The position numbers were made by a program, and so were the translations under genes. Shown piece by piece: positions 1-42,800 of a stretch of 64,000 nt of DNA (position 1 is its first letter; each line of letters begins with the position of its first letter). Location: NCBI GenBank assembly GCA_964035545.1, contig OZ037773.1, positions 3,389,751 to 3,453,750 on the forward strand, in the 5' to 3' direction. Below the pieces are notes generated by a model that was not told the origin of the DNA, did no database searches, and saw nothing but the letters and a program-made list of their open reading frames with translations. Source of the DNA: Bugula neritina (taxonomy: Eukaryota > Bryozoa > Gymnolaemata > Cheilostomatida > Bugulidae).

Positions 1-3000
1 ACGTGTGGGCCGCCTTTCTCGAGTTGTACATCGCCACAGAGAAACCCAGCGAAGAGATCAGGGCGTGAGTATCACTTCCTATATAACACAGTGCGCTATA
101 CAATGGTTTTAGTTTTAGCTGATGTACCAGTGATATCTCTTCCACTTCTACAACATATCAAATCTGTTTCCTCATACAGTGTTCCCTCTACATCTCACGG
201 TTCCATTTCACATGATTGGACCCCCATTTTGTGGCTTATGTATGTGTGTATGTGTATGGAAAGAAAATGGCCGAATGTAACGGATCAATGAGTTAAACAT
301 GGTATTCCACTATGTCATGAATTGAGGTTTCGGGACCCGCAGCTTAGTGAGATATAGAGGGGGCATTGTATTCTTGATCTTTCTTACTCACTTCCTGCCA
401 GTGTAGACTATAGTTGTGTCATGGCCTCTGGATTACACACAGACCGTGACTGTCAGGGTGAAATATTCTAGAACGTCTACTCTTGCAGGTTGTTTGAGCG
501 AGCCATCAACACGTGTGGACTAGAGTTCAAGTCTGACAGGATCTGGGACATGTACATCGACTGGGAGGTGAAGAACAACCAGCTACTGAACATCACTCAG
601 ATATACAGACGTCTGCTCGCCATACCTACTAAAAACTACACCATACACTACGAGAAGTATGTCCTTCCACTGAGCACTACAGGATTCATGTTGACTTTTG
701 TGACAGTGGCTGTTTGCCATTATTTGTGTTGTTCTTTTTATTTTTTCATTTTAATTATATTTAGATGCGCAATTACTGGAGCTTTCTGTTTGTAAGGCAG
801 ATATTTAGAATGATTCTATAAGCAGCTCCTAGCGGGGGGGGGGGGGTGGTGACTGAGTGCAGTAGTTTGTGGTCCTTGAGTTTGAAGTTGGAGTTTGTTG
901 AAACCCTAAACCCCAAACCCCAAGCTTGGAGCTGCTCATAGCACCATTCAGATATTTAGAGTAACATTTCAGCTCAAACAGAAATCTGCTACTGGATACT
1001 ATGTTGTTATTTGTTGCGTTGCAGTGCAAAGGAACACGTAGAAAAACACGAGTTGTGGGAAATTCTCTCCCCTGAAGATATGAAAGCACTTAGGGTGAGA
1101 GCCAATGCTAGCCTCACTTCCAACACAGAAGGTGAGGGGGAGGAAGAGGGCAAGGACGCCCCTCCCGGTACTGCAGGAGACGAGGTTACAACTACCGCTG
1201 TCGATACGACAGCTGAAGATGATGTAGAGAGTGATCCACGTGAGTTAGCATTGGAACACAGGCTAGGCAGTGTTGTGTAGTTATCTAATAGAAGCACAGG
1301 CTAGGCAGAGTTGTGTAGTTATCTAATAGGAACCCAGGCTAGGCAGAGTTGTCTGTCTGGCTAGCTGCTAGCTCTCACTTCCTGTCATCTATTTAAATAA
1401 GTCATGTTGAGTGAAGGTAGACTGGCTTTCTTATTCGTTTGTCTAGTTTGGAGTAGTCTTCCCCTGGCTACTCAATCTGGGTCATTTTACTTAATTTAGT
1501 ACACACTAGAAATCTCCAGTTTTTAGCTATTTTTTCCAATTTAGCTGCTAATGACCATGGCTTTTTGCCCAAAACTAGTAAAATATGAATGGACACACCT
1601 AAATAATCAAGGTTCTGCTTAATTTTGCTTGATTTCCCATGTTTTTTTCTAATTATTCAGTCACTTTTGATTTCGGAGTTATGGTTTTTTCATAACACTT
1701 TGCAATCAAAAGTAGCTGAATAATTAGGAAAAAACCTAGCAAATCAAGCAAAATTAAGAAGAACCTTGATTATTTAGGTGTATTCATTCATATTTTACTA
1801 GTTTTGGGCAAAAGCCTTTGTTTATTAGCAACTAATTTGTGAAAAATAGCTAAAAACTGGAGATTTCCAGTGTGTACTAAAATTAATAAAATGACCCATC
1901 TCTTATGCACTCTGTAATGGTGTATTTCTAACTTGCTGTGTTCACAGAGACCATGTCGGAGGTGGTGAAAAAAGCTGCCAAGGACCTCCTACTTGCTGAC
2001 TTTGAACTCCTGGCTACACACAACGAGAAGGAGGTGAAGCTGCGTTGGGCTTTCGAGGATGCCATCAAGCGTCCGTATTTTCACAGTAAACCCCTCGGTA
2101 TGTCTCTTCTTTCACAGTATACCCCTCAGTTTCAAAAGATTTTTTATAATTATTAAGTTTATAGGACGTAAAGATATGTACCCAGCAGAATGTAGGAAAC
2201 CATAAGCATCATATAAATGTACATTTCTTTTACTTAGTTTTTTCATGGTGCTATATTGGCATTAAAACATGCCAAATGGCAGACAACACTACTATCAGTC
2301 TACAATTTTTACAATGGTGTTGGAATAAGTGAAACTTATATTGAAGGAGTTTTAAATTTATTCTGTTGTATGGTATACTCGTGTAGATAGCACACAGCTG
2401 AAGAACTGGAGGCGGTACTTAGAGTTTGAGATAGCCAATGGGGGTGAAGATAGAGCCATCTTCCTGTTTGAGAGATGTATGATAGCTTGTGCCCAGTATG
2501 AGGAGTTCTGGCTGAAGGTACTTGACACACATTACTGTGTCTTAATAACATTTCAGTTTTCTCTTACTCTATACAATCACTATATGTTACAGTAATATAT
2601 TGCTCTATGTATATATAACCACAGTTCAAGTGTATATTACAGTAATATATTTTTGGTTTAGGTGTATAATACAGTGGTATATAGCATGGCAATACATGTA
2701 AAGTCTGTTAGCTGTGCTGAACAGTGTGATATTGTGTCTTAGACTACAGTCCTTGGTGTATATTATACTGTAGCATGTATATAAAGGTATATATGTATTG
2801 CCATATGCAAAGCAAGCATATATTACTGTGGTCTCTGTATGCAACACACATACATATATTACAGTACACATACCTATATTACAGTACATACGTATATTAC
2901 AATGCACATACGTATATTACAGTACACATACCTATATTACAGTACACATACCTATATTACAGTACACATACCTATATTACAGTACACATACATATATTAC

Positions 3001-6000
3001 AGTATACATGCGTATATTACAGTACACATGCGTATATTACAGTACACATACTTATATTACAGTACACATACATATATTACAGTACACGTACCTATATTAC
3101 AGTACATACGTATATTACAATGCACATACGTATATTACAGTACACATACCTATATTACAGTACACATACCTATATTACAGTACACATACCTATATTACAG
3201 TACACATACATATATTACAGTATACATGCGTATATTACAGTACACATGCGTATATTACAGTACACATACATATATTACAGTACACATACATATATTACAG
3301 TACACAACGTATCTCGAGAGTCTTAGCCGACACACAGACGTAAGGAATGTCTACACGAGAGCCTGTCGCCAACATCTCCCATACAAAGCATCTATTCACA
3401 TCACCTGGGCCTTCTACGAGGAGCGTCAAGGTATCCCATAATTCTCGTTTACTGACAGCTTTATGAGTCATACTCAAGTTTCGTACTATTTGTAGTCGGT
3501 CGTGTAACCAACAGCTTGTCTGTACACTGCTGTTGACTGTTGAATTGTTTGTATTCCTTCATTATTTGTATTTATTGGAGTTGTCTTCTAATTGTGCAGG
3601 AAACTTTGACGAGGCCCTGGCGGTCATTTCCAACATAGAAATGCAGACTACAGACAACATGTGTGTGTTGAATCACAAGCTGAATCTACTCCGTCGTCAC
3701 GGCGATGACCTCAATGATCTCTTCACATCCTACATAGACAAGAAAGAGCTCAATGCTGACTGCGTGAAGCTTTTGACGAGCAAATATTCTCGATACCTTC
3801 TAAAGGTACCTCCACTCATTCATACTCTGTGTCACTTCGTGTCACTCTGTGTCACTTTGTGTCAGTGTCAGTAGGTGTCACTTTGTGTCACTCTGCTTCA
3901 CTCTGTGTCACTCTGCGTCACTTTGTGTCACTGTCAGTAGGTGTCACTCTTACTAGGTGTCACCTTATTTATATATAAATAGATTTCTAATAATGGTTCA
4001 AGACCAAAACTGTATTTGCTCACCGCTCGACATATTTGTTTACTTATATTTTCAAATTTCTTGTGTGTCTAGAATCTAGTTGTTTGCATGTTTAAGTTTT
4101 CTAAGTCAAACTGTATTCACTCCCTGCAAGACATGTTATTTTATTTCTATTTCTAGATAAAAGGAGATGCTGACAAGGCAGCAGAAGTATTGAAAGATGC
4201 AATCACCAAGAATCCAGTAAGTGTTAGTCTTAGAGTAGAGAACTCCTGTCTTGTTTACAAAATGGTCAAACAACTTCTCGAAGCCACTGTTATGTACATA
4301 AACACACAGACACTGCTTATGCTCTGTACTTACCATATAGAAATACTGTTTCTGAAACGTATCACCATGCATTGTACAGATGCCACATACAAATAGTATG
4401 TCCACCTTCACGCTAAGTTCACACTACTGAGTGTTTCACCTCTAGTATTTGGTATGATATATAAACCAAATAAATCTGTTATAAAAAGTAGATTTCACCT
4501 AAAAACTGTTGCTAAGTAGTAAAGCTCAAAGTCAGGTTTTAACTGGCATATAGTCTAGACTCTAGAATGAGTTGGTGAATAGATATATGTATTCAAATAA
4601 GTTTTTATGTGGTCATTACTTTTTATTTCTCACAACAATCAGTATCCATAATGCATTTACTGTTTGCTCTGCACACCACATATTATTCTATTTTTAGCTG
4701 CACGAGCCGTTCTACACTCAGCTCCTAGATGTAGAATATCAGAGACAGCCTCTCGACGAGGATAAGGTTCTCGCTGTGTTTGAACTCGTCAACGCGAGCT
4801 CTTTGTCTTCGGAGATAAAACAGAAGTTCTACTCGAGACGCTACGAGTTCATAGACGACCTTGGTTCAGATGTCACAAGGTCAGTGCATAGTTTTACTGC
4901 CGAGTGTGGTGATTGGCTATCGCATCAAGCCCGGAACTTGTGATATAATCAGTATATAATGTAAAAACTCACGCCGGTTTATAGTCACCATCCCTGTGAG
5001 AACCAGGCTAAGGGCTTATTCAGATGTGACACAGGAGCAATTATGACTGGATGCTCTTCCTAACATCACCCATGGCCTTTACTGGGGTTTGAACCCATGA
5101 CTTCGTGCTCACTAACCAAACGCTCTAACCCCTAGACTACGGCTGCTCTCTCAGTATAGACTGTGGTCCTAGTCGTATTTTAGTAAAGCTGTATACTCAG
5201 TCTTTTGCTGCATAAGAGTTGTTTGGTTGTTTCCTAGCAACAGCTCCATAATGCCAAGGTTATCTTCTACAAGTACCTAATAAGTGTGATTTGTTAATAA
5301 TTATGCAGAGTATTTATATTTATTCCATTCTATTATAACTTCACGATATTCTCCTGGTGATTCAAAACCATTCCACCAAATTAACTCAATATTTTACTCC
5401 TCGTTCACTAATTATTTTGCCATTTGAACTAAATATATGTTGTGTTTGTTACTATTTTTATCTTTCTTTAAAGTGAATACATACCAAGCAAAACCCAAAG
5501 CACACATTCCCTTTTAAATATGCTGCTGCTGCTGACATTCTGTGGCAGAGATTATTGGTTGTAATTATTATTGATTCTTTGATTTATGTTTAGAGTAGGA
5601 AGGCTGCCAAAGTTCTATAAATAGTTGTATCCAGTTGAGCTGAATGTTCTCTGAGCAGCATGTTATTAATGTGGTGTCGCCTCCGCTGTCTGTGTATGTG
5701 ACTATGTGTTGTGTTGTATAATAGTGTTTCTGTTAATTTAGGTTGTACTCCCTCTACCAGGAGCTGGAAGAAAATATGTCTGCTGCATCTAAAGATAAGA
5801 AACGAGCTCACTCTGCTACTCCCAGGTACGTTGTACTCACCTGTGTGAGGTCATACCTGGAATAGTTACCCGTGTGATATAATACCTGTATTTATGTGTA
5901 CTAGTATATCTCCATCTTCACTATTATATAGTACACTCTTCACTATTATATAGTACACTCTTCACTATTATATAGTATACTCTTCACTATTATATAGTAT

Positions 6001-6762
6001 ACTCTTCACTATTATATAGTACACTCTTCACTATTATATAGTATACTCTTCACTATTATATAGTATACTCTTCACTATTATATAGTACACTCTTCACTAT
6101 TATATAGTATACTCTTTACTATTATATAGTACACTCTTCACTATTATATAGTGTACTCTTCACTATTATATAGTATACTCTTCACTATTATATACAATAC
6201 TCTTCACTATTATATAGTATACTCTTCACTATTATATAGTATATTCTTCACTATTATATACAATACTCTTCACTATTATATAGTATACTCTTCACTATTA
6301 TATACAATACTCTTCACTATTATATAGTATACTCTTCACTATTATATAGTGTACTCTTCACTATTATATAGTATACTCTTCACTATTATATAGTATACTC
6401 TTCACTATTATATAGTATACTCTTCACTATTATATAGTATACTCTTCACTATTATATAGTATACTCTTCACTATTATATAGTATACTCTTCACTATTATA
6501 TAGTGACAAGACTGTGGATGCCAAGAAAGCCAAGACCTCGATGTATACTAACAACGGCACTGCTGCCACTGGGGCCTACTCCAGCCAATCGTATCATCAG
6601 CAGCAGGCAGCCAACTACGGCAGCAGTGGTCAGGACTGGAACTCGTACTACCAGCAGCAGGGCATGGACTACAGTCAGTACGGGGCATACGGCCAGCAAG
6701 GCTACTATCAGCAGGGCTATGGCGGGTACACAGGCTACGACTACAATACTGGCTACTATTAA
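1..6762 (+). CDS. PRPF39: PRPF39, pre-mRNA-processing factor 39 (5' truncated by window)
   Basis: U1 snRNP-associated splicing factor (Prp39 family) made of HAT helical repeats; acts in the nucleus in 5' splice site recognition. Exons seen: 3-64, 489-656, 1025-1239, 1948-2097, 2387-2517, 3301-3430, 3600-3805, 4157-4216, 4698-4879, 5742-5825, 6504-6762; all junctions are GT-AG and phases match. Diagnostic stretches are RAINTCGLEFKSDRIWDMY, KRPYFHSKPL, YEEFWLK and RACRQHLPYK, colinear with vertebrate PRPF39. An acidic linker is encoded near 1120-1235. The last exon encodes a Tyr/Gln/Gly-rich tail ending TGYDYNTGYY, similar in place and composition to the Tyr-rich human tail. The N-terminal part lies before the window. 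Introns 5 and 10 hold large minisatellites that supply the acceptor; intron 3 holds a fold-back element and intron 9 a SINE. No canonical AATAAA was found close downstream. Confidence 0.95.
231..374. repeat. dispersed repeat, copy a
   Basis: This part of PRPF39 intron 1 resembles 7955-8083. Shared words include AAAATGGCCGAAT, ATCAATGAGTT (copy b ATCAGTGAGTT), a CTTAGTGAGATA-like block and GCATTGTATT in the same order. Similarity continues weakly upstream of both copies, around the word TTGGACCC. No terminal repeats or coding potential were recognised, so the class is unknown. Confidence 0.6.
1479..1897. mobile_element. fold-back (long inverted repeat) MITE-like element in PRPF39 intron 3
   Basis: Two arms of about 200 bp are near-perfect inverted copies around a short loop near 1675-1705. 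The left end reads GGGTCATTTTA and the right end reads TAAAATGACCC. Inner matching blocks include CTCCAGTTTTTAGCTATTTT, TTTTGCCCAAAACTAGT and ACCTAAATAATCAAGGTTCT. Both ends are flanked by ATCT, a possible 4-bp target-site duplication. No open reading frame is present, so it would be non-autonomous. It lies wholly within an intron (1240-1947) and would fold into a long hairpin in the pre-mRNA. Confidence 0.85.
2844..3300 (+). repeat. 20-bp minisatellite carrying the 3' splice site (PRPF39 intron 5)
   Basis: About 23 copies of a unit close to TACACATACCTATATTACAG run directly into the exon that starts at 3301. Each unit ends in ATTACAG or a near variant, an acceptor-like sequence, and the last one is the acceptor used. 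The exon also begins TACACA, as the unit does. A higher-order duplication of about 218 bp is visible (2873 onward matches 3091 onward). The array has no stop in any plus-strand frame, which explains long repetitive reading frames here. Confidence 0.95.
3828..3962 (+). repeat. degenerate 10-bp tandem repeat in PRPF39 intron 7
   Basis: Roughly a dozen variants of TCTGTGTCAC/TTTGTGTCAC begin about 20 bases after the donor at 3806. GTCAGTAGGTGTCAC-like variants recur. The array is close to, but does not include, the 5' splice site. Confidence 0.8.
5010..5150 (-). mobile_element. tRNA-derived SINE in PRPF39 intron 9
   Basis: On the minus strand the head (about 5145 down to 5080) reads like a tRNA: GTAGTCTAGGGGTTAGAGCG resembles the D-arm/A-box region and GGGTTCAAACCCC is a B-box/T-arm. 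It is followed by a tRNA-unrelated tail with GGAAGAGCATCCAGTC, like the tails of several animal SINE families. It is inserted antisense in intron 4880-5741. No target-site duplication could be assigned. Confidence 0.7.
5911..6503 (+). repeat. 22-bp minisatellite carrying the 3' splice site (PRPF39 intron 10)
   Basis: About 27 copies of a 22-bp unit occur, each with a short pyrimidine-rich stretch CTCTTCACTATT followed by ATATAG. A few units have ATACAA instead. The final unit (AG at 6502-6503) is the functional acceptor of the last exon, which starts at 6504 and continues TGACAAGACTGTGG. Nearly every unit is therefore a candidate 3' splice site. Confidence 0.95.
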
Positions 6763-7639
6763 ACTTTAGCCTGTGATACCTATATTCCACGACAACCTCA
6801 ACATTTCTACTAACAGTGTTTCTCCTGCAATCTTATGCAACAATATAAGATCTTATGGCTATGAAAACCTTTTTAGTAAGAAATGTTGACGTTTTGTATA
6901 TAATTTGTGTATAATATCATGAGAGACAAGTTTATATTGCTGGTAAATTTAACATTGATCTTTTTCAGTCTACATTGTTATACTTATAGTTGTGCTATTC
7001 AAATATACTTGTACTCTATAATCAATATACATGGACTAGACAGCAGTTTTGTTATTAATTAATCACTTATACCCTGGTTTAAGTCAACACCAGTGTTATG
7101 TTTATGATAGACATCTTGGCATAGCCAGACACTTGGCCTATGGTCTGCTTCTTTCAGCTGAAATATTTGAAATTCTTGAGAGGTTATGCTGCTGCCCTGA
7201 AGCTGACTGAGTCTGTTGTATAAATGGAGAGAGTTCACGTTGGTGTTTACTTGATAAACACAATGTGATACTTTACCTGCTCTATTTACTCCTGCATGTT
7301 GTTGTTACTCTACCCCACTATTGATGAGGTCATCCAGGGCAGCTCCAGAATATGAAAAGTTACACGATTTTTAGCTTATATAACATGTAAGTATAAAAGA
7401 CAAGAAGGTATTCACCTCCTCATGTGAACTAGGCCTAGAATTTCTCCTGTTACGCTGAGACAGCATCTTTCTAAGATTTGTTGGGTTGATTTGACAAACC
7501 TATCTGATAACCACAGTGCAAAATGCCTTCTCACCATTATACACAACATTTCCATCTTTGGCCTTTTCCATCTCTCTTTATAAAGATATAGATGTCTACC
7601 TCAAGTATATACCTTGATATAATAAAATTCACAGTGCTG

Positions 7640-8083
7640 TGTGTTAGGAAATGCATCTAATTGCTCCCTCTGTAGCTTACGAATCCCTTTCCCCACAAAG
7701 TTTCATAGGTCATAAGAAGGGTTTGGACCCACTTTTGTTGAAATGCCATCAAGACTCGGTTGTATAAACGTGTCAATTTCAAATTTTGGGTAGCGCTGTC
7801 ATTAATAGGGAAGGTATCTCTTGTGTAACAGGTGGGTGTGAAATCTACGTTGCTTTGATAGTAATTGGACTATAAAGGTCAAATACAATGGGATATAAAT
7901 TGTCAAATTTAGATTAAATGGTCAGAAGTAATTTAATATTGCGTAGGTGTATGCACGCCTATATGTATGTGTGTAGGGCCAAAATGGCCGAATTTAAGAA
8001 TCAGTGAGTTCAATTTGGTAATCTAATTGAAGTTTACGACCTGTGGCTTAGTGAAATAGGGAGAGAGCATTGTATTTTCTATA
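7640..8083. repeat. dispersed repeat, copy b
   Basis: Longer relative of 231-374. The clearest match is 7955-8083, with TATGTATGTGTGT, AAAATGGCCGAATTTAAG, a GTGGCTTAGTGAAATAG block and GCATTGTATT. A weaker upstream match around TTGGACCC near 7724 suggests copy a is internally deleted relative to this one. Confidence 0.55.
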
Positions 8084-9286: not shown

Positions 9287-9313
9287 ACCCCTCCCCCCAC
9301 CCCCCCCCCCCCC
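9287..9313 (-). repeat. poly-C tract (G-rich on minus strand)
   Basis: A run of 14 cytosines at 9300-9313 follows ACCCCTCCCCCCA. Further C runs occur near 9819-9860, 9926 and 9991. On the minus strand these are G-runs that could form quadruplexes; function is unknown. Confidence 0.8.
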
Positions 9314-24621: not shown

Positions 24622-27600
24622 ATGGATAATCTAAGGTGTGTGAACTCAAAGAGAAACTCGTGGTTATTTGACGCTGAGCATGTTTGGACATCAACCACAA
24701 TGGATCAGGTAAAATACTCTACATAATAAAATATTGAGGCTGCTGCATGTAAAGGAGGTACTGCCAGCACTAAGTATAGCTATGATGTAATTTATAGATA
24801 GAAGTTGAGGAGAACGTGCAGGACATCTATGATGCCTTTCAGGAGAAACTGTTGACTGAACCAGCAGAAGGTGATCTACAGAGAATTCCAGAGTAAGAAT
24901 GATAAACGCTTATGTTTTTGGTGAAAAGTTGTTATCATGTTTTGAGTTGCTATAAATCAGGCTGTATTAGTTTGAATTCAAATAAGTTTAGGGTGTTAGT
25001 CGATACATGATATATTATGGGAGAGGTATAGGTTAGACAAGTGGACAACAGAACTGGCGTGCCATAGTAAGGGTACAGTAAAAGTCTTTGTGTATCTAAT
25101 ACTAAGAAATACTAGCTTTTGTTATATAATTTTTTTTGCATTTTTTTGCTCTACAAATTATATTTTATATACTCATTTTCATGTGAATGGAACATGTATT
25201 CTGTGAGTTGACCTCATATTGTGGGAATTAGGCTCTTTCTGAGTGTGAAGTTCATATTTATTTTAATGCCCAACTACAAAATCAAAACTGTCTTTTTTGT
25301 TTAGAGAGTTATTATTGAAAAGGAAAGCCTTGGAGAGTTTCCTAATGAAAGGTTCAACAAACCTGCCTGGAAGTTACTGCTGTCTAGACGCCAGTAGGCC
25401 GTGGCTATGTTACTGGATAGTTCACAGCTTAGAGCTGTTGGGTATAGAAGTCCCTGCTTCACTTGGTTCCAGGTTTGTGTCATCAACTCTATATTTAGTT
25501 TGAGCATCTCTATTTTTAGGCACTAATAACACCGGCTGTACATGTTCTAGCTCATGCTTAGAAGAGAAGCTAGTAAATTGAGTTTGCGAAAGTCTTTTAA
25601 TTTAAGCAGTCTGAAAAATAATTTGCTTCTATTTAAAATTTTCATGTTAATTTTCTGTTAAATAATATTATATCAATATGGAATACTTGCGAAATTATTC
25701 AGTATTTAAACTTTCTGTTTATTTATAGAATGGTGAAGTTTTTGGGTAAATGTCAATCAGAAACTGGGGGTTTTGGAGGTAGGTAGATTTCTTGTGTGTA
25801 CTCTTTATATTAAGCTGGTATAACTGTGACTGATAATGACTCATACTGTACCTGTATACATCATGAAGTGTTTTTCTAGGAGCATACAACTCCTAATTCC
25901 TCTCACACTGTAGGTGGTCCTATGCAACTGCCCCACTTGGCTCCAACATATGCTGCAATAAGCACTCTCTGTATTATTGGCACCGAAGAAGCTTATGCTG
26001 TTATAGACAGACACAAACTGTACGACTTCCTCTTACAAATGCACCAATCAGACGGCTCCTTTATTATGCATGAAGGAGGAGAAATAGATATTAGGTAATG
26101 TCTGATATAATATTTTATAATTTTTCCGGATTTTTCTTTCGGAAATTTTTGCTAATTATTTTTTTTTTTCTATATCTATATGGTTTTAAATTGTGTTGTA
26201 CAAGTAATTAGAGTTAGCAAACCTTTGATTGTCATTCCATCAGATAGTGTTTGATAGGTTGTTCAGTGTTTCAGTTATGACTCTATGATATCTATAGTTA
26301 GTAATATGTAAGCAAAACTTATACCGGGAGTTATCTTCTCTTTAGAGGGTGTTATTTAGCTGCAGACGTTGCCAGATTAGTCAATATAGTTTCAGAAAAA
26401 TTGTTTGAGAACACAGCTCAATGGATTGTACGGTGAGGTTTACTCAACATCAAAATGCATTTTGTATGATAATAGCATATGTCATATAATATAATATATT
26501 GAATATATAAACTTTATATAATTTCTATTGACATGTTTCAGTTTATAGTCGTTGCTAATATGATGGCTGTTGTTGAAGTTTTCCTTTTAAATGCTAATAA
26601 TAGACTGCGAAGACTAGGGATCTGCTATACCAATTTATTCAGCAAACTAAGTCTGGAATATCTAGTGCTTCTGTTTAAATCTGTGCCCGTAAAGTACTAC
26701 TATTGCGTGTGCTCAGGAATTTTGGATGAATGAATTTATTAGCATAATTTCTCTGACAGATGTCAAACATATGAGGGGGGCTTTGGAGGAGTTCCCGGCA
26801 TGGAGGCACATGGTGGTTATGCTTTTTGTGGGATTGCAGCTCTCACCTTACTGGGTCATGAGAGATTGTGCGATGTCGATGCTCTTCTGGTAAGTTACTG
26901 TGGTTATGTGGTATCAAACCTATCATGGGTTGTAATCACTTTATGACGTAATCTTGTTTTAATGTATATTTTGTTACTTTATAGCATATTTATACAATGT
27001 ATAGTAATTAAACCTCATATTTATGACTCTACTTTTTTGGAGTTGTCAGTTCATGTCTGGTGGTTTTAGCGCTGGACTGTAAATAGGCAGATGCAGTTTG
27101 AGGGTGGCTTTCAAGGACGTACCAACAAATTGGTGGACTCGTGTTACAGTTTCTGGCAATCAGCTATTATTCCGGTAATCTCATCAATGACTGAGTACAA
27201 CACACCGAAATCTCTCTTCCATAGCGGCGCACTGCAAGAGTACCTGCTTCTGTGTTGTCAACACCCTTATGGAGGCTTCATAGATAAACCTGACAAGTTA
27301 GTAGATGCCCAGTATTGGGGAAAATTTAACAAGCTGTGTATTACTACTCATTGCATAGTTTGATAATTTAGTTTTACTTTTCACCTATTTATTTAACAAG
27401 TTAAAGGAAACTCAACAGTTTCAATAAGGAATTGTTTCCTCTTACTGCGGGAATCTAAGTTAGTCATAAGTAAAAACAGCGGAAACAACTTTCAATAGAC
27501 TATTTAATTGCTTTAATAGTTTTAAAAATTTTATTAAATTGAAATTTTTATTGACAGATCTTCTCACTACAATAACTTCACAATATATTACACATATATT

Positions 27601-28317
27601 ATAGAGCAATGCCGATAGGTTTGCTACTGTATGTAGACATAGAGACTATTATAGAGCAATGCTGATAGGTTTGCTACTGTATGTAGACATAGAGACTATT
27701 ATAGAGCAATGCTGATAGGTTTGCTACTGTATATAGACATAGAGACTATTATAGAGCAATGCTGATAGGTTTGTTACTGTGTGTAGACATAGAGACTATT
27801 ATAGAGCAATGCTGATAGGTTTGTTACTGTGTGTAGACATAGAGACTATTATAGAGAAATGCTGATAGGTTTGCTATTGTGTGTAGACATAGAGACTATT
27901 ACCACACATGCTATTCGTTGAGTGGACTTTCTATCAGTCAGAACTTCACCGGTTCCTCTGCCACTAAGCCTCATGTCATCGGAAAGTCTGACAACCTCAT
28001 GGTTAGTGCCCAGCATATAACCTTCTATTACTAATAGATGCACTGTGATATGGTACTCATTCTGTATTAACTGTTGTGTTCCCGTATTGGCCTGCTGTGT
28101 ATGCGGGTGTGTATATCTATATATGTATATGGTCTAGCTAGGACTTAACTTTGAATACAACTTACGTTTTAATTCACCAGTCTGGATTAATATTAGAAGT
28201 TATCCTGTACTAATTTCTATGTTGTAGATTCCCGTCCACCCAGTCTACAACTTGGGTATTAAATCAGCAATTCGGGCCACTGATTATTTTCAGAAGTTGC
28301 CTTCAGTTAAGACATGA
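24622..28317 (+). CDS. FNTB: protein farnesyltransferase subunit beta (FNTB)
   Basis: Catalytic beta subunit of the cytosolic Zn-dependent enzyme that transfers farnesyl to CaaX-box cysteines; it works with the alpha subunit (not in this window). Exons 24622-24708, 24798-24892, 25305-25472, 25729-25778, 25914-26094, 26346-26432, 26760-26889, 27070-27296, 27887-28001, 28228-28317; 409 aa against about 437 in human. Prenyltransferase alpha-alpha barrel repeats are seen as CCLDASRPWLCYWIVHSLEL, GGFGGGPMQLPHLAPTYAA, SDGSFIMHEGGEIDIRGCY, EGGFGGVPGMEAHGGYAFCG and QFEGGFQGRTNKLVDSCYSF. All three zinc ligands are present: Asp289 and Cys291 (LVDSC) and His348 (YYHTCY). The end (PVHPVYNLG...ATDYFQKL) matches human but lacks its final acidic tail. 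Exon 9 begins inside a 50-bp repeat array. A candidate AATAAA is at 28751-28756. Confidence 0.96.
27601..27900 (+). repeat. six 50-bp tandem units spanning the FNTB intron 8 / exon 9 boundary
   Basis: Six units of exactly 50 bp start at 27601, 27651, 27701, 27751, 27801 and 27851. Each carries an acceptor (TGTATGTAG or TGTGTAG) followed by ACATAGAGACTATT, the first 14 coding bases of exon 9. In the last unit these are real: AG at 27885-27886 and exon from 27887. The array therefore copies the intron-exon junction itself. Confidence 0.95.
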
Positions 28318-28756: not shown

Positions 28757-29458
28757 ATGTCATAAAAGTTGAAGATTTCTAGTTTTGGATATAAAAATAA
28801 TTCCAGTTTGAAACTAGCTTCTAATTACAACTATGAATATATCCCACAATGCAGGAGGAAACAACACACAAAAGGATTTCATAAGGTGCAGTAATTTGTT
28901 CAACTGGCATTTTCCCTATTATAACATGAGGGGTACTTTTCTGATGCACATGCCTTAGTCATTCATTAATTTTTAACTTGAGGTAACCGAATATCTTGTA
29001 GAATGAATAGTATTATACAGCGAGTAGAAAACTCCTAATGATTCTAGTTAATCATGACTAAGCTGATGGAAGTGTGAAAGACTTTATTATCAAATTATAG
29101 AACTAGTGAAAACTGGCAAATATTGCTATATTAGACTGCATTGTAGCCCATAATTTTATCACTAAGTTCAAAATGGCGATACAATACACACATTTCTTAG
29201 GAGGTGGTCACAGCTAAACGTGATTGCCACTAATTATTATTACTGTAAACTAAATGATCATAATAGAGGTAATTCATGTACAATAGTATTGATAGATTTA
29301 TAAGGTACTGGTTGCACTTCTAGTGGCTAAATAGCATAATTCTACTGCTTCTGCTTGTACATGAAAATGCATTGAATTAGTCAATAAAAACATGTGCTGT
29401 ATAATAGTATGGAAGATTAGAATGCAGGTAAACACTACATGGTACAAAATAAGGCAGT

Positions 29459-32400
29459 CTATTGTGTGCGGATAGTCATGGTCCAATCATCAGACATATT
29501 TACAGCAGGTTTACGCACAGTTAGTATTTGCATTCCCTCTTCATATTTAAAACTTAGCTCTTTATCCACTCCTGTAAAATAGAAGGCATAAACATATGAC
29601 TGGCAAGATGAGGGGGGACAACTTCAAGTGACCTTGAACAAAATTGCATACATGTCTGAAAAAATACCTGACCGGTCTTGGCCCAGGTTTTTATTTTAGT
29701 GACATAATCATAAAGCTAATCATCCAATCAGTAATCTGTATATCAAAGTACAATGTTACTAGGAAGAGAGAAATAGGTAAGTAAATCAAGCATTGCATGA
29801 ACATACCCTTAGAGCTCAGAGTGACTTTCGTTGGTTTGCTGGAATACCCAACAATCTTCACTGACTCCAATATTGATTTAGTTCTAAATGTGGTTGAATC
29901 TATTGCACTACAAAGAAACCAACACAACATATAATTCAACAATGCAAAGGGTTAGAAAACATCTCCATTGTTGAAATAGTTTATATCATCTAAAGTCTAA
30001 ACAATCACATAGGCTCAAGGAATTTCCTGTTAAACATTGTCAAATTAACTGCTGAAAACCACAACATTGTCAACTTGACTCCTGAAAACCACAACATTTT
30101 AGATTGACAAGTGTATCATCACTAGCTAGTGAAACTTTCTAACAGAATTCAGTAACCAACCGGATAAAGCCTTTCAACAGCTGCACACCCAAGAAATGTA
30201 TTACTATGCTGTCTACTACCCTGGGAAAAGGTAAGTGAAGATTTGCACGTACCTGCTAGTAAGGACACTGTTAGTGAAAGAAAACTTTCTATAGAGGTAG
30301 TGACCTTGTCGGTATTGGAATGATTTATAATCGTCTATATATAACTGGCCCTCGGCTGCACCCTACACAATAGCAAACAGATTATTACAAGCTGTACTCT
30401 CTGAAGAGCTTGGAGTTACCCTCCCTCCAACAGTGAAACTACCTAATGATAATCAAAGTTTCACTGGCTGTAGCAAGTGTTAGTTTGCATAGCAACCTCG
30501 AGTAAAGACTATATGCTAAAAAGGTAACGTTAAACACAGGATATTGAATAAGATAGTGTATATTAGACGTAATTCATACATACTCTGCCATTTGCAATAC
30601 TCAGGATTCAAATTAGCAAGTGCTAGTAAGTATAATTGTCAATATGTATACTTGAAAAATCAAAGACATATTACGTTATTGATGGCAATGTCCATGTATG
30701 ACGCTACTTGATATAGTAAAAATAGTACTCCATTTACTGTAGAAATTTTACCCACAGATTTAACAACGCTAGAAAGGCATTTTTTAGCCCTGGAACTACG
30801 GCCTTACCTTGGAGTCTAAGGCTACAATTAAAGTATAAGGATCATCAGTCATCTGGGTGGTAGATCGCCTCACCCTGTCCTTGCGGGGTACAATATAGCC
30901 CCCTCGATAGAAGTGTGGCACACTGGCTAAGGTTACTGGCAAATAAGCCTGCAAAACAAAAAGATAGAGAATATTAGCAATACATGCTGCGGCCATTTGC
31001 TGTTTTGACCAATTGCATCTATGTGCGAAGAGAAAAATACATCCAATCAGAATCAACTAAAATATGGTCCTTCACAGAAATGGAATTAAATAGGATACAG
31101 CAGATTATAGTCTAGGAGTATTGAGCTAATCTAACAAGCAAGAAGTATATAAAATATTCCTGGCGCAAAGTGCTGACTCACCTTGCTGCCTCCTGGAATC
31201 CTCCTAAAGTCGTCAGCGGAGTACCAGACGTCGTAGCCGTCTCCGGCGAAGTTGACGTTGACACCAGTAGCACCTTCCTCCGTCACAGTTCTGACTAGTA
31301 TAGCAGGACCTGCAGTAGTCAGTATGTACACTTATACCATTAAGTAAGTCATAGTTGAAACTTAGGGCTTATACCAACTCTAAGCTTATGCTTGAAACAG
31401 GAATAGAATTGCTTTAACGCTGAGTGTCTATTCTATAGCTACTAAGCTGTACAAGTCAATGGATATACTAGAATACGCTCAAGGAATATTCATACCCAAC
31501 ATGAACTGCTCGTCCTCAGCAAATCCGTTAGGGTCTTTAGGGAACTCCACCCACATGGGGCGGGCTGGAGGTATGCCTTCCTTCTCGTTCACATAGAATA
31601 GGGTGTACCAATACGGCAATAATTGATATCTACAGAAAATAGGAAAACACTGATATCCAGAGAAAGAAAGGAACAATTAATGCAGAAACTATATGCAGAA
31701 AGCAGACAACAACTGATATCTACAGAAAATAGTCAACAGAAAGTATTCAACAGGAATTAGTGAACAGGAAGTATTCAACAGGAAGTAGTCAACAGAAAGT
31801 ATTCATCAGGAAGTAGCCAACAGAAAGCATTCAACAGGAAGTTGTCAACAGGAAGTAGTCAACAGAAAGTATTCAACAGGAAGTGGGCAGTAACTAATGT
31901 CAACAAAACATGTGGTAATATCTCAAGAACATATGAAACTTGTAACCTATTTCTATAAAAGCAACAGCTGATACTTTGAAATAAACAAAATATGACACCA
32001 TGGACAAAGTTGAAAAGCTAAAAATCAAAGCAGAATCCTATAGAGCATTAGGTATGCTATAAGGAATCTGTGTAAAGCATACGGCACCTGGTTATGATGG
32101 CATCTCTGATGATATTTCTGTTTTCCTCTGGCAATAACCAGGGTTCTCTTCTCCGTGTGTCTAAGTGAGAGTGGGCGCGATAGAATGGGGTAAAAGCGGC
32201 AGTCTACAAAGAGAGGCCAGCAACTAAGGCTATTCTACTCTACAGTTGATCTCCAGAAGACACAACAAGGCAGGATCTATAGCCTACAGTTTACCACCAC
32301 CAAGCAGAATAACCAAGTGCTGATAACTCCAGTAGCATATAACTAGTAGTATATAACTAGTAGCTTGTATATAACTAGTAGCTTGTATATAACTAGTAGC

Positions 32401-35400
32401 TTGTATATAACTATTAGTTAGTATATAACTATTAGCTAGTATATAACTATTAGCTAGTATATAACTAGTAGTCAGTAGTATAGTATATAGACAGTTACCT
32501 GGTACCAACGAGTGACCAGCTCAGCACTGGGGTTCCGGAAGAACCCGCCAACATCGGCTCCAGTGAAGGTGATACCTACAGAGTAAAGACAATTCAGCTG
32601 ACATGTCACAGTATAGAGAATCTGACTGAAATATCGTTCACAGAAAACTTGCAATATGTAAATTTCAGCAGCCAAACTCTGAAACACACACATATTAGGT
32701 TCTGGTTTTTCAAATTCAGTGACACAACACAGGAAATGTTATCTTTGGATTGTAGGCAAAATATTCTATCTCCTGCATACTTGTGGTAAAGGAACCATTT
32801 ACCTGTAACAGACTGAGAGAGAATCATAGGAATGGATATCTTGAGGTGGCTCCACTCCCCCATGTTGTCGCCTGTCCACACAGCGCCGTGTCTCTGTGAG
32901 CCGGCATAGAAAGCTCTGGACAGGACGAAGGGTCGTAGTGAACCCCCAGATCTCTGCACCAAACCCTCAGATGTGGCTTGTTGCTGTCGAAAATGACGAA
33001 ACAAGTTGAGAAAACTCATCCAAATAAAACAAACATTGACATTTGATGCAATCCAATGCTCTGTATTTGTTTCATCAGAATGGCTGTTTGCTCAAATTTT
33101 ATATGTTTTATTTCAAAATATGAGACTCAAGGAAAGAAGCTGACAGCAAGAAACACACTACACGCACCACATAGAAGCCGTAGAGGTTGTGAACATCTCT
33201 GTGCTCCCAGCCGTCCGCGTGCACCGCATCTTTATGCATCGTAATCTCCGGGCCGTTGAATACACTCGGCTCGTTCATGTCGTTCCAAGTGTAAACATCC
33301 TCGCTGGTGCCTTTGTAGTCCTCGTAGTTGAACTTAGATGCCCACCAGCTTCTCATGTCAGCTCTGGTAAAGTCAGGGTACGAGGAGGACCCTGTAATGG
33401 ACAACGACTCATTAGTAAGAACTCAAGCTAATCTAGATGACTCTTACGTGCAAGTAGTAGGAGAGAAAAAACAACCCTCGCAAAGTGCTTTCTCTAAAAA
33501 AGGATAAATTTTTAAAGTGGAGCCCCTGTACTCTATCCGCAGAGTACACACGTTTGTAAAGATAAGCAAACACCCCCCAAAGGAGCAAGAGTGGCATATG
33601 TCTGAATGTTTATGGTCCATTATAATATTTCGTAACTTATTCATCACACCTGATGGGAGAAGAGTGTTGGAGGTGATGGAGCTGTGAAAACTATTGCAGC
33701 GCTATAAATATAGGTCTTACAGCCACAGCCAATAGGAACTACCAACACATGCAGCTGCCTTTACAGCACCCGACACCACAACACCGACAGCGCGGCAGCA
33801 TAGAATGATCACCTACCGGGCCAGCACCAGCCGTCAAACTCTTTCCCGTCTCTCTTGACAAACAAGTCCCTGTCCTTCAGCTCCTTGTATATGTGGTAGT
33901 TGTCATCTCTCTTGATATGGGGGTCAACAATAGTCACCAACTTCCTGCCAGTTGACTTGAGTTTAGCCACCATGTCGTGGGGAGTAGGAAACTTGCCCCC
34001 GTCCCACGTGAAGTACCTGTTTCAACATGTCAACAGTCTGCTGATGGTATATAAGCAGAAGGTACAACTTTAAGCTTTTAACTGAATGCTGGAGGTTGCA
34101 TGTCATTAAGCACTTCTTTGCATTCAGATCAGCAGACTTACTGATTTGAACCAACATGGTGTTTTGCACGTGAATCGTAGAAAGACCAAATTGTTAAAAA
34201 TTGAAGAATTATTTTTATTTTACAGAAATTTCCTCCATTCAGCATTATGCATGCATTTCTTTTATTCACGTATTTTCAACTTCAAATTTCTTGAAGACCA
34301 TCAAATCTAGAAAGCAGTTTCATATAACAACGATTCTTGTAATACTTGAAGAGTCACAAACCGTTTCCCATCAGTGTGCTCGATGTCTAACCACACAACA
34401 TCCAGAGGAATGTCATGGAGCTCGTAGTTGTCATGGATCTGCTTCACGTCTGCCTCGTCATTGTAGTTCCACCTGCTTTGGTGGTAGCCGAGAGAGAAGA
34501 TCTACAGAAAGAGAGAAGATCTACAGGATAAGAGAAGATCTAGAGAAAAAGAACATCAATAGAAAGAGAATATATACATAGAGATGGTGTCTGCAAAGAA
34601 AACTAATGGTAAGAGTACTACAACCAAGGAGCCCTTAACGCAATAGAAATAAATACACTATCCGTAGAAAAAGCTTTTGGGAGAAACAAACTAAAGAAAT
34701 ATTATAATAAACGAACTTACGGGAGGCAAGTTGGTGGTGCCCGTCAAACTAGCGTACTGCTTGAAGAGATCAATAGGGGAAGGTCCCATCATAACGTAGA
34801 GATCGATGACACCGGATTCAGCTACCCACCTCGTATCCATCTGCAAATGAATGTAAAGGTAAAGCTAATGGCAGCAGCTGTAATAGTAACAATGATAGTA
34901 GTAGCAGCAGCAGCAGCTGTAGTAGTAGTAGTGGTAGTAGTAGTAGTAGTGTTAGTGGTAGTAGTAGTACTAGTATTAGTACTAGTAGTAGTAGTAGTAC
35001 TAGTAGCAGTATTAGGAGTGGTACACAGTACCTGAGGAACAGTGTTATCTTGAGTCACAAAGTCTACCAGTTTTCCCAGAGTAGACCTGTCTGCTTTACT
35101 AGATCTGACGTCTACCCACATCTCACTAGGATTATTCCAGAACACACCTGTAACGCGTGACATGATGTGTAAACAACAATCAACTTGTAGTATACCGTAT
35201 ATAGACATGTATCCCTGTATACGCACGCATAGACAGTGTACACTATGGGTACGTGTGTGGAATATACATATTAGTAGAAATTGGGTCAAATACTAATTCA
35301 GGGAAAAGCGATGCAAGGGAAATGGTGATTGGCTGATTGACCAATGCTCATGTGTTAATTATAAGCCCAACTTACTACACTGTAGGTACACACACACGCG

Positions 35401-38400: not shown

Positions 38401-38536
38401 TTTTTACTCTGCAGTGAATAAAATTGTTATCTTACTTGCAGAATCCACTTTCATCACAAGTCTTGAAGTTATTTCTATCTACTGCTAGAGCAGAGTTTAT
38501 AAACAACAACACGAAGAGTACTGCACAAACTTTCAT
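29459..38536 (-). CDS. GANAB: glucosidase II alpha subunit, GH31 (GANAB)
   Basis: ER glycoside hydrolase (GH31) that removes the inner glucoses from N-glycans; works with a beta subunit (PRKCSH family) in the calnexin cycle. 22 exons by low-high coordinates in transcript order: 38436-38536, 38147-38262, 37679-37817, 37402-37572, 36209-36410, 36066-36123, 35774-35870, 35466-35584, 35032-35147, 34721-34840, 34362-34501, 33817-34016, 33168-33391, 32803-32983, 32499-32575, 32088-32203, 31496-31629, 31182-31309, 30808-30948, 30253-30362, 29807-29907, 29459-29571; phases match throughout and give 967 aa. The N-terminus [18 protein letters not shown] is a signal peptide, followed by the family motif [14 protein letters not shown]. 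The catalytic nucleophile is Asp564 ([10 protein letters not shown]) and the acid/base Asp640 (WTGDN). Other landmarks are [35 protein letters not shown] and [11 protein letters not shown]. The exon at 36209-36410 encodes a Pro/Glu-rich acidic insert, in the same place as the variable acidic segment of human GANAB. Confidence 0.97.
31625..31885 (-). repeat. acceptor-derived repeats in the GANAB intron before exon 17
   Basis: On the minus strand the acceptor context TTTTCTGTAG plus exon start ATATC (31625-31642) is repeated at 31714-31731 and, degraded, near 31649. Upstream, 31733-31885 is a degenerate array of about 14 bp, in plus-strand form TCAACAGGAAGTAG/TTCAACAGAAAGTA. On the transcribed strand it is a series of pyrimidine-rich blocks such as TACTTTCTGTTGA. 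Confidence 0.75.
32334..32475. repeat. 18-bp tandem repeat in a GANAB intron
   Basis: About seven to eight variants of TATATAACTAGTAGCTTG lie in intron 32204-32498, starting about 25 bases inside the donor of exon 32499-32575. It is near, but does not contain, the splice site. Confidence 0.85.
34489..34551 (-). repeat. about 20-bp tandem repeat containing a GANAB 3' splice site
   Basis: Three variants of AGAGAAGATCTACAG (plus-strand form). On the minus strand each reads CTGTAG or CTCTAG followed by ATCTTCTCTC. The copy at the exon edge is the true acceptor (AG at 34503-34502) plus the first exon bases. Confidence 0.8.
34865..35025. repeat. triplet-repeat-filled GANAB intron
   Basis: The intron 34841-35031 is nearly all degenerate (TAG)n/(CAG)n on the plus strand, with blocks such as GCAGCAGCAGCAGC and GTAGTAGTAGTAGTAGTG. 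Only short flanks next to the splice sites are unique. Confidence 0.9.
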
Positions 38537-39882
38537 AGTAGTGATTTCCCACCTGCAAGTGCAACATCAACATGAACATGGTGAAAGCATTAACATATAA
38601 TTTGACATACATCTATATTTTATCAATTCAATCATTAAATGATTCAATTAAAATGATTCTATTTAATTATGACAGAAATATCAATATTATTTAAATTTTA
38701 GTAACACTTATACCAATAGCCTACTAAAACAACTTGAATATTTTATTTTTAAAGTTATTAGCAATTGTAAATCATAATGAAAATATGTCACATTCACTAT
38801 CACTATGACTATCAATTTCAGTATAACTATAATAATTATAAATTAATATTATAATATAAATAATAAAACTAAATTTAATATCAATTATGTAATGGTAATG
38901 CTAATAGTAATACTAATAGTCATAGAGATGGTGCATTATTAGTAGTAATACTAAATCTAATAGTAGTACTAATAAGTATTAGCAAATGTAACACTAATAC
39001 TAATAGTAATGGTAATAGTAATACTAATAGTTATACTAACAGTAATAGTAATACTAGTACTAGTGGTAGTAGCAGCAGCAATACTTTAACATTAACATAT
39101 AGTTATACTTATACTAGTTATAGTTATACAGTTACACATTGACAGTACGCTTACCACTACACTAACACGAATACTATTACTAATACTGCAAGTAAGAGTA
39201 AGTGTAAGTGTAGCTGTAACACTAACACTAACAGTAACTGTAACAGTAACTGTAAGTCATAAGTGCAACTGCAATTCCTGGCCACTGTGACACTGACTGG
39301 GCCCTGGGCAAGGCAGTTAGAGTTTGCAATATGAAAACTCATAAAATTAAATAGTAATTGCGATAGTCAGCCACTAATAAAGACAAAATGAGAAAATTCA
39401 AACATGCATTAGACTCGAATTTGCTATTGAAATCACTATGAGCAATGACTATAAGAATAAACAATGAATGAAATCCTTTACCATTGTCTTTCGGCCATGA
39501 TGATAGTAAATGTAGTCTTACCAAAATTTATGAATCATGAAGAGGATACATTTTTAAAAAAAGAAACGAGTATCAAAATAATAAATAAATAAATATTTGC
39601 TCAAAATATAGGCAACATTTATACAACAAAAATTATTATGCAAAAAAACTTTGTTTTATTAAAAAAATAAATGCTTTATATAAAGACTATATCTGCTGTT
39701 ATCAGCGATTCCGATAAATTATATTCTCGAAAGTTTGGTTTCCGAAATCGGCATGCCCTATGGCCTGTTAAATATTTGTCACTGTAAGACTCATTCAGAT
39801 TTACTTTTTCAAAAGCTGCCCATACAACTAATAACTATTAAAGAGTCATACGTTTTCAAAAATTAACTAATTTATTTTTTAA
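38537..39882. promoter_or_regulatory. divergent promoter region of GANAB and GPATCH4
   Basis: The two start codons are 1.35 kb apart, head to head, so both promoters and 5' UTRs should lie here. The middle (38810-39250) is made of degenerate TAATACTAATAG/TGTAACTGTTAC words like those at 23040-24320. No TATA box or other core element could be assigned with confidence, so the regulatory call rests on gene arrangement alone. Confidence 0.4.
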
Positions 39883-42800
39883 ATGTCACGCAACAAGATA
39901 GATGACAAATCTTTCGGTTACCGACACTTATGTGAAAGGGGCTGGAACGACGGTATGAAAATAAAATTCACTTTGACTTTCACTGATCACTCAAACTTTC
40001 AGTTTGGGGTTCACCCAAATTAAAATTCAATTATTTTCAGTACAGAATTAAAATATTGAAACTAAATTAAAGTTTTATAAAATTGAATAATATTATATTT
40101 ATTAATATAACCTAAACCTTAACGGGCTAACCATGATTATAGTTTATTTTATATTTAATTTTATGCCTATACTTAGTCTTATACTTATAGTTATACAGTA
40201 TAACTTATAGTTATACTATAACTATTACTATAAGTATAGCTATAAGTATAAATATAAAATGAACTATAATCATGGTTTAGGTTATATTAATGAATGTACT
40301 ATAATTCAATTTTATAATACATTAATTTAGTTATAGTATCAGTATGACCATGAGTATGTGGGCCACTGCTGAATCTCAACAGTCAACACTACACTCAATC
40401 TCATTACATTCAATAATTTGTTTTCAGTTGAGTTTCATCTGCCAGATCCTTAGAATATATTTTAGTTCATTTTTTGTAGTTATACTTTTGCTCAAAGTGA
40501 GACTGAGAGTGAGTCTTGCTTGTACTTTCTTAACAAAATAAAAAGGTAATTGTCTGGCAGCTGGTAGTTGTTTGATTCTTTTGGTTATTGTCATTGAAAT
40601 TCACTAGAATTTTAGTTACAAACGTTAATGTATAGCTGGCAGGAATAATTAATATGTTAGGAGTTATTTAGTTGATATATTAGTTATCAATTCTGCCATA
40701 TGTAATAAAATTGTGTGTCATTTGTAGGTGAAGGCCTGGGTCGAGACAATAATGGAACAGCTGATCCCATAAAAGTGAATGTATGTAACGCTCTTACCTT
40801 ATCTAGTTGGATAATTACATAAGTTTTTAAAATAATTTATGAATAAATTTATAAATAACAGTATTTCTACTTGAAATTTGTTATTTAGCTGAAACACGAC
40901 AAAGCTGGCCTTGGGCATGATATTAGTAAAACTTTCACCAACCAGTGGTGGGACCATGTGTTCAACAAAGCGGCTGCTAAGCTCTCTGTAGAGACTGGCG
41001 AGGAGGGGGTGAAGGTCACTTCTAATTCCGATATGTCTGAAAAACAAAAGGAAAAGTTGAAAAGAAAAGTGTTATATGGAAACTTTGTGAAGGTGAGTAA
41101 ATGGAGGACATGTTTTCTACTTAACTTTAAGGTTTACATCGACATGATATACATGTCATTGGATAATGCTCTGGACGCTACTATTGTAGGGGTCCACTCT
41201 AGAGTTTGGGCAGGAAACACATGAGGTACAAGAAGCACCTGAGGAGGAGTGTCCACCGTCAGCTGTTTCTGTGTATGTTTCTAATATTTTCACTCTAACT
41301 CTAGCCGTTCAACTTCAGTTTGTAGTTTCACTTTCGTTATATAACTCTGTGTGTCTGTTGTAGTTTCTATCTCTTAGTGGACTTGTTTGGCTTTCTAGAT
41401 AATCAGCTTTCGTTTCACTGTGGCATTATTTCCAGTTTCATGTTTAAGACTGTTTTACAAATACGTAAAAATATGATTAGTTTTTTGTTTTCCGGTTTTA
41501 AGTCTTCAAGTTCAACAATAAATAATTTATTATATTGTTGAAAATTTAGATAATTTGGCTTCAGTGTTGTATTTTCATTGTTTGTTACTCATTGTCTACT
41601 GCCTGTGTTTACACTATTACAGGCTAACAGATGATCAGTTGCTGTTGGCGTGTGGAGGGCGAACAGCGCATAAGTGAGTATTTATAATGTGAAGCCTACT
41701 TTGTTATAAATAATTACATTCTCGTGGCAAATCTAATATTAATTTGCATTTACTAATTTACTTGTTAAGTCATCTCTCACTGTACTGAGTTGTTGCACAC
41801 ATCTTTCAATCAATTACTGTAGAGGTGCGAGGCACGGTTTCAAGATGAATGGTAAACTAGCCAGACTGGAACAGCAAGACAGCTCAGGGTTTCTAGGAGA
41901 TGAGGAACTAGTTGTTAGGTATGAACTAGTTGTTAGGTATGAACTAGTTGTTAGGTATGAACTAGTTGTTAGGTATGAACTAGTTGTTAGGTATGAACTA
42001 GTTGTTAGGTATGAACTAGTTGTTAGGGATGAACTAGTTGTTAGGTATGAACTAGTCGTTAAGGATGAACTAGTTTCTATGTTTATATTTTCTCTTATTT
42101 TGTTGTTTAATTAAGAAGAACCTGTAACCTGAATGTAAACACAAGTTATTTGCTTTTTATTTACTAAAAAGCTTTAAAGTATGTATTGGTCACAATTAGT
42201 TTTTAATACTGATTGTTTTAATAAAAGTTTTTTGTTGAATTAAGTAAGTGAATAAATGCTTGAAGAATTGTACTACATTATCCATACTATACAATTTTTA
42301 GACATAAAACGAAAAAGTCTAAGAAAAATAGAGACGATGAGAATGTGGAGGTGAGTCATAATAAATAGTCAGGGACAATACCACGAGTTTCCAAAGAGTA
42401 CCTCCCAAGTTCTGTGATGCAAAATATTCTGCAGGCTGTAGCACTCCAGTTGAAGTATTTATTACTGCTAAGTACTGACTATTCATGTATCTGCAACTTT
42501 ACACACAATCAAGAATCTATAAAGCCACACAAATTAGAAAACTGTGGTGTGAAAATCACTAGCAATCTGGCAAAAGGTTGCTATGTCTATGTTCATAGCT
42601 TGACATGTATATTCAGTTCATAAACATTTGAGTTACCAACATATCATATCACAGAACTATAATAATGAAGTGATGCTCATTAACTGTGAACTTTTTTGAA
42701 GGATTTCTAAACCTCACTTTATATTTATATAATATAAATTTCTGTATTTTCCTATTGACGATTGTTCAACATATTTTTTATTGATTTCTGTGGCTTTAAT

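What the first reader, a model, noticed from the sequence alone, without database searches (positions are those of the whole stretch)
2844..42075. Splice-site-anchored tandem repeats recur across unrelated housekeeping genes
Six splice sites in PRPF39 (two), FNTB, GANAB (two) and GPATCH4 have a tandem repeat whose unit contains the splice site itself, often with adjoining exon bases. In PRPF39 and FNTB the last unit is the functional acceptor. Unit lengths (14-22, 18, 20, 22, 50 bp) and sequences are unrelated, so this is not one repeat family. It suggests a mutational process that expands intron-exon junctions, or tolerance or selection for redundant splice sites. About 50 introns are visible, so six is a high rate. 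I know of no name for this pattern.
Basis: partly seen in the sequence, partly recalled or inferred. Interest (0 to 1): 0.85.

Follow-up and report, generated by a model that had tools for sequence, protein, structure and literature searches.

The report
Minisatellites straddling splice sites ("mirages")
In this bryozoan-like genome some short tandem repeats in introns run across the exon edge and copy the splice site many times; the pattern is already known as "mirages" in lancelets, and outside the window studied it was no more frequent than random repeat placement in introns would give.

Summary
At five of the six named sites (PRPF39 twice, FNTB, GANAB, GPATCH4) a tandem array contains the functional splice site plus 1-15 exon bases. 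At the sixth (GANAB, 31630) the junction is duplicated, but the nearby 14-bp array lacks the AG. Six more cases turned up in 18 other 10-kb stretches of the assembly (SMC2, ERMP1, a P-type ATPase, ACO1). The pattern has a name: lancelet papers call it "mirages". The host is most likely a bryozoan.

A special process at splice sites is not shown. Of 47 intronic arrays, 11 span a junction. Random placement within array-collapsed introns expects 10.6; a null pooled over each gene expects 6.1 (P = 0.03). The excess comes from the window (5 of 9); elsewhere it is 6 of 38, against 9.2 or 4.9. Splice-signal columns are not significantly more conserved. Best reading: a genome rich in intronic minisatellites, some of which began on an exon edge; the exon-proximal copy is probably used and the rest spliced away. 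Still open: why strong arrays sit in introns rather than intergenic DNA, and why they cluster in certain genes.

The parts
2846..3306 (+). PRPF39: 20-bp array (x23) whose last copy is the functional acceptor TATATTACAG|TACACA; 6 exon bases in the array; 20 other AGs in the array score no more than 1 nat below it
   Evidence: no gap at the junction in the protein alignment
5915..6504 (+). PRPF39: 22-bp array (x27) ending in the acceptor TATATAG|TGACAAG; 1 exon base in the array; stops in all three frames of the array
   Evidence: exon edge rests on gene model and frame
27597..27901 (+). FNTB: 50-bp array (x6) whose last copy holds the acceptor GTGTGTAG|ACATAGAGACTATTA; 15 exon bases of a conserved segment in the unit
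   Evidence: no gap at the junction in the alignment to solved FNTB
34491..34569 (-). GANAB: 19-bp array (x4) holding the acceptor TTTCTGTAG|ATCTTCTCTCT; 11 exon bases in the unit
   Evidence: no gap at the junction in the alignment to solved GANAB
41905..42075 (+). GPATCH4: 18-bp array (x9.5) beginning with the donor GAACTAGTTGTTAG|GTATGA; 14 exon bases in the unit; 18 bp = 6 residues (ELVVRY), open in frame through the array
   Evidence: G-patch domain in upstream exons
31622..31884 (-). GANAB: acceptor junction ATTTTCTGTAG|ATATC with one further copy about 90 bp upstream in the intron, followed by a 14-bp array (31722-31884) whose unit lacks the AG
32347..32471 (-). GANAB: 18-bp array (x7) inside an intron, 27 bp from the donor; does not contain the splice site
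3824..3948 (+). PRPF39: 10-bp array starting 18 bp after a donor; does not contain the splice site
1255..1352 (+). PRPF39: 38-bp array (x2.6) starting 15 bp after a donor; does not contain the splice site

Best explanation
These are mirage-type minisatellites. Short segments of intron (about 10-50 bp) undergo tandem duplication and then expand by slippage or unequal exchange. Where the first duplicated segment straddles an exon edge, later copies carry the splice site and a few exon bases. Such arrays survive because the exon-proximal copy keeps its original exon context and is the one used (last copy for acceptors, first for donors), so the other copies fall inside the intron and are removed. 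No special targeting of splice sites is needed: once arrays are collapsed, array-bearing introns are short enough (18 of 47 rows at or below 150 bp, median 199) that random placement puts nearly a quarter of arrays on a junction. Shown: the arrays, the place of the functional copy by protein homology at five junctions, recurrence in other genes, and the fit to random placement within introns. Inferred: the duplication mechanism, neutrality, and that the exon-proximal copy is the one spliced (no RNA data).
For: Eleven junction-spanning arrays in eight genes with different units: PRPF39 (2), FNTB, GANAB, GPATCH4, SMC2, ERMP1, P-type ATPase, ACO1. No gap at the junction in protein alignments for FNTB (49), PRPF39 3300, GANAB (62), SMC2 R|LYN (63), ACO1 DFT|GVP (64). 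11 of 47 span against 10.6 expected within collapsed introns, P = 0.51; placement score not different from uniform, KS P = 0.24. No significant constraint on splice-signal columns, P = 0.35, 10 of 11 arrays testable. Periods divisible by 3 in 4 of 11, about one third. The same anatomy is described in lancelets, where RT-PCR suggested regular splicing.
Against: The window alone exceeds expectation (5 of 9 against 1.4, P = 0.005). Introns with collapsed length above 150 bp give 7 of 29 against 3.0 (P = 0.02; 3 of 21 against 1.9 outside the window), shorter ones 4 of 18 against 7.6, so the overall fit averages two opposite deviations. A null pooled over each gene expects 6.1 of 47, P = 0.03 (all). 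Most gene models are my own ab initio predictions with hand edits. No transcripts, relatives' genomes or second haplotype were seen.
Confidence: 0.67

Rival explanations
1. A mutational process acts preferentially at exon-intron borders, for example through transcription- or splicing-linked DNA structures, so arrays are born there.
For: Window: 5 of 9 spanning against 1.4 expected. Gene-pooled null: 11 of 47 against 6.1, P = 0.03. Introns with collapsed length above 150 bp: 7 of 29 against 3.0, P = 0.02 (all). In the window, arrays scoring at least 100 lie in introns and not in intergenic DNA: 8 against 0, P = 0.0012.
Against: Outside the window 6 of 38 span, against 9.2 (intron null) or 4.9 (gene null, P = 0.37); long introns outside the window 3 of 21 against 1.9, P = 0.29. 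The length split is post hoc, and at least one long intron (SMC2, L008) is long through a later insert.
Confidence: 0.18
2. Redundant splice sites are selected for, because several acceptors or donors make splicing robust or give in-frame isoforms (GPATCH4 18-bp units would each add ELVVRY; the PRPF39 20-bp array is open in the exon's frame).
For: 80 internal sites score no more than 1 nat below the functional site over 11 arrays. The GPATCH4 array and the PRPF39 20-bp array have no stop in the relevant frame.
Against: No significantly lower variation at splice signals (10 of 11 arrays testable, P = 0.35); 7 of 11 periods shift the frame; the FNTB and PRPF39 22-bp arrays carry stops in all frames.
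Confidence: 0.05
3. The arrays mark introns recently created by tandem duplication of an AG/GT proto-splice site (Rogers model).
For: The model has support in some Drosophila introns (PMC2891723, passages) and was proposed for lancelet mirages (PMC3087553, passages). In the P-type ATPase (L014 1691-1825) units read CAG|GTAAAG, acceptor-like and donor-like at once.
Against: By TRF edges, the opposite splice site of the same intron lies outside the array in 11 of 11 cases. Intron ages and similarity of the two ends were not tested.
Confidence: 0.05
4. Assembly artefact: collapsed or inflated repeats from sequencing.
For: Array lengths in an assembly can be wrong.
Against: Arrays have distinct, imperfect units; three junction flanks that I searched each gave one match in the assembly; for lancelet PGBD5 the authors say re-sequencing argues against assembly error (passage).
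Confidence: 0.03

Closest known systems
Mirage minisatellites of lancelets (Adh3, globins BflGb6 and BflGb9, troponin C, PGBD5)
   Same: [quoted passage not shown] many copies carry the splice signal; unit length varies between genes (Adh3 10-72 bp; globins about 150-160 bp); reported not to disturb splicing (PMC3087553 and PMC3902484, passages).
   Different: Here the host is most likely a bryozoan (best FNTB hit Watersipora subatra at 72% identity; the other named animals among the 120 hits listed have 50-59%). Here 11 cases in 8 genes were found in 244 kb, with a placement test that the passages I read do not report. Haplotype or somatic length instability, reported in lancelets, could not be tested.
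[quoted passage not shown] potato RdRp PMC4974935)
   Same: Tandem duplication involving splice signals.
   Different: There one exon duplication makes a new intron; here introns are lengthened by many short copies. PMC2891723: passages. PMC4974935: listing and start of abstract only.
Ordinary intronic minisatellites / VNTRs
   Same: Period, copy number and unit variation.
   Different: Only those that reach over a junction carry copies of the real splice site.

Membership tests
mirage minisatellite | Minisatellite-like tandem repeat spanning an exon-intron boundary | tested here: met
   Five arrays in the window and six elsewhere; junctions backed by protein alignment without a gap at the junction in five cases
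mirage minisatellite | Many, not all, copies contain the AG or GT splice signal | tested here: met
   80 internal sites no more than 1 nat below the functional site over 11 arrays
mirage minisatellite | Both 5' and 3' exon borders can be duplicated | tested here: met
   6 acceptor and 5 donor arrays
mirage minisatellite | Correct splicing is not disturbed | not testable with these tools
   No RNA data; only protein homology indicates the exon-proximal copy
mirage minisatellite | Length instability between haplotypes or in somatic tissue | not testable with these tools
   No second haplotype found for the three sites searched, one match each
intron gain by proto-splice-site duplication | Donor and acceptor of the same intron derive from two copies of one duplicated segment | tested here: inconclusive
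   By TRF edges only one of the two sites lies in the array in 11 of 11 cases; similarity between the two intron ends was not measured

The most novel reading that the evidence does not exclude
In this bryozoan lineage exon-intron borders are mutational hot spots for minisatellite birth, seen in introns of normal length (7 of 29 arrays against 3.0 expected where the collapsed intron exceeds 150 bp), linked to transcription or recombination, so that splice-site copies accumulate faster than elsewhere in introns.
Probability: 0.17. Interest if true: 0.7.

Novelty: new member of a known kind. Interest (0 to 1): 0.38.

Why it matters
In the papers I read, mirages were described only for lancelets. 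Finding junction copies at 12 of 312 junctions in a sample of a distant animal suggests that the structure arises wherever a genome makes many intronic minisatellites. It offers natural tests of splice-site choice: more than 20 near-equal acceptors in a row with, by homology, the exon-proximal one used. It warns gene annotators about arrays at exon edges. A claim of a junction-specific mutational process would need more than this window.

Tried and rejected
Not upheld: junction-specific enrichment as a general claim. It holds in the window (5 of 9) but not in the other loci (6 of 38), so the window may be a favourable draw. Not upheld: selection on internal copies. Rejected: one repeat family (units differ). 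The first gene finder ran into nonsense exons; it was rewritten with length priors and other gene-boundary costs. The first GPATCH4 model had a wrong second exon, corrected by reading; the exon with the array was not affected. A search for a second haplotype with other array lengths gave one match each. The Daphnia tandem-repeat paper (PMC3152781, passages) has no occurrence of 'splice' and reports units above 8 bp as rarer in introns than elsewhere, unlike here.

Correction made on review: the first placement test (expected 11.5 of 47) used multiples of the true period for seven arrays. One search repeats it with the smaller periods (expected 10.6) and also the gene-pooled null (6.1 instead of 7.0). 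The gene-pooled P fell from 0.07 to 0.03, so I raised the junction-targeting rival from 0.15 to 0.18 and the novel case from 0.15 to 0.17, and lowered the main explanation from 0.70 to 0.67.

Rows dropped: of 67 arrays that passed the thresholds (period at least 8, copies at least 2.5, score at least 60, microsatellite-like units removed), 47 lay in introns that I curated by hand and were counted. The other 20 were intergenic, unassigned, coding (L004, 45-bp repeat) or in uncertain gene models. Hand edits are in the scripts; three intron ends are off by a base or uncertain (L008 6947, L010 121, L014 1022). Of 156 introns, 152 are GT-AG. TRF edges miss a degenerate last copy at L010 3014, which the 16-mer test finds; counting it would make 12 of 47.
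Full report
What was checked. The window lies at G000:C9:3389751-3453750 of a 215.8-Mb assembly in 295 contigs, nine of which are 10.9-35.6 Mb long. The best hit of its FNTB is Watersipora subatra, a bryozoan, at 72% identity; the other named animals among the 120 hits listed have 50-59%. I take the host to be a bryozoan; this is an inference from one protein.

The six sites. TRF confirms the arrays. A gene finder that I wrote and trained on this sequence recovers PRPF39 and GANAB well; FNTB and GPATCH4 were assembled by hand. Five arrays contain the functional splice site, with 6, 1, 15, 11 and 14 exon bases: PRPF39 acceptors at 3300 and 6503, FNTB acceptor at 27886, GANAB acceptor at 34502, GPATCH4 donor at 41919. 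Protein alignments show no gap at the junction for FNTB, PRPF39 3300 and GANAB. The sixth, GANAB 31630, has a duplicated junction and a neighbouring 14-bp array whose unit lacks the AG.

Recurrence. In 18 stretches of 10 kb taken at 1.0 and 5.0 Mb of the nine large contigs, six further arrays span a junction: SMC2 donor (L008 4222) and acceptor (L008 6273), ERMP1 donor (L010 1098), P-type ATPase acceptor (L014 1700) and donor (L014 5457), ACO1 donor (L019 6459). Identities: SMC2, ACO1, ERMP1 and Cation_ATPase domains. The alignments show no gap at the SMC2 acceptor (R|LYN) and the ACO1 donor (DFT|GVP). A test that does not use TRF finds a copy of the junction 16-mer in the same intron at 12 of 312 predicted junctions (2 mismatches), against 0 of 312 for reversed and 0 of 312 for exon-interior 16-mers; with 3 mismatches 15, 0 and 1 of 312.

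Is the splice site special? Arrays lengthen introns, so the fair comparison is the intron with each array collapsed to one unit. Over 47 arrays in curated introns, 11 span a junction and 10.6 are expected (P = 0.51). Window: 5 of 9 against 1.4 (P = 0.005). Other loci: 6 of 38 against 9.2. Collapsed introns above 150 bp: 7 of 29 against 3.0 (P = 0.02), of which outside the window 3 of 21 against 1.9 (P = 0.29); shorter ones 4 of 18 against 7.6. The length split was made after seeing the data. A null pooled over all introns of each gene expects 6.1 of 47 (P = 0.03), and 4.9 of 38 outside the window (6 seen, P = 0.37). All, which corrects. I conclude that no general attraction to splice sites is shown; a modest one, up to about two-fold, is not excluded.

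Function of the copies. Inside the 11 arrays, 80 other AG or GT sites score no more than 1 nat below the functional site. Splice-signal columns vary about as much as other columns (0.048 against 0.058 expected, P = 0.35; 10 of 11 arrays testable). Periods divisible by three: 4 of 11. The GPATCH4 array is open in frame and would add ELVVRY per unit; the PRPF39 20-bp array is open in the exon's frame; the PRPF39 22-bp and FNTB arrays carry stops in all frames. Use of internal copies would thus often break the protein; the simplest reading is that the exon-proximal copy is used and the rest is intron.

What is uneven. In the window, arrays scoring at least 100 are 8 in 20.9 kb of intron and 0 in 27.4 kb of intergenic DNA (P = 0.0012); at the lower threshold of 60 they are 9 and 3 (P = 0.03). 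Arrays occur in 41 of 147 introns of the 19 genes with at least three predicted introns and are unevenly spread (permutation P = 0.0002): SMC2 12 of 16, P-type ATPase 8 of 14, ERMP1 5 of 7, against none in several other genes. Stretches at 1.0 Mb hold 46 arrays, those at 5.0 Mb 9 (paired one-sided P = 0.02, noticed after the fact). Minisatellites near chromosome ends are known in other animals (recalled), so recombination is a candidate cause; nine pairs are too few to say more.

Comparison with the literature. Tandem repeats spanning exon-intron boundaries are called mirages in lancelets: globins and Adh3 (PMC3087553, passages), troponin C and PGBD5 (PMC3902484, passage). The original Adh3 paper is known to me only through these and recall. 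Two searches with bryozoan terms (15 of 104 papers listed; 12 of 585 listed) showed no paper on this structure in bryozoans among those listed, which is weak evidence of absence. The pattern meets the structural features of mirages that I could test, so I file it as a new member of that kind, in a lineage for which I saw no earlier report.

Noticed in passing
L002-L019 (C1-C9 at 1.0 and 5.0 Mb): Minisatellite arrays are about five times as many in stretches 1 Mb from contig starts as at 5 Mb (46 against 9).
   Followed up: partly
L008:7520-8830: An insert of about 1.3 kb, with end sequences repeated in inverted order, splits a 15-bp array of an SMC2 intron in two, so the array is probably older than the insert (read).
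   Followed up: no
L012:888-1437 and L012:4745-5181: The same 40-bp unit forms two separate arrays 3.3 kb apart, outside predicted genes.
   Followed up: no
window 49849-53049 and 58330-61957: Two neighbouring paralogous genes (RhoGAP-like by recall) with similar exons; no array passing the thresholds lies in either.
   Followed up: no
G000 contigs C295, C6, C17, C196, C65, C4: Eight COX1 matches: one on C295 and a very similarly scoring one inside C6, both with 9 TGA (mitochondrial, C6 perhaps a nuclear copy), and one without stops on C17, perhaps from a bacterium.
   Followed up: no
L014:1691-1825: P-type ATPase acceptor array whose units read CAG|GTAAAG, so that copies are both acceptor-like and donor-like; compare dual-specific splice sites of polyubiquitin (PMC10809524, start of abstract seen).
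   Followed up: no
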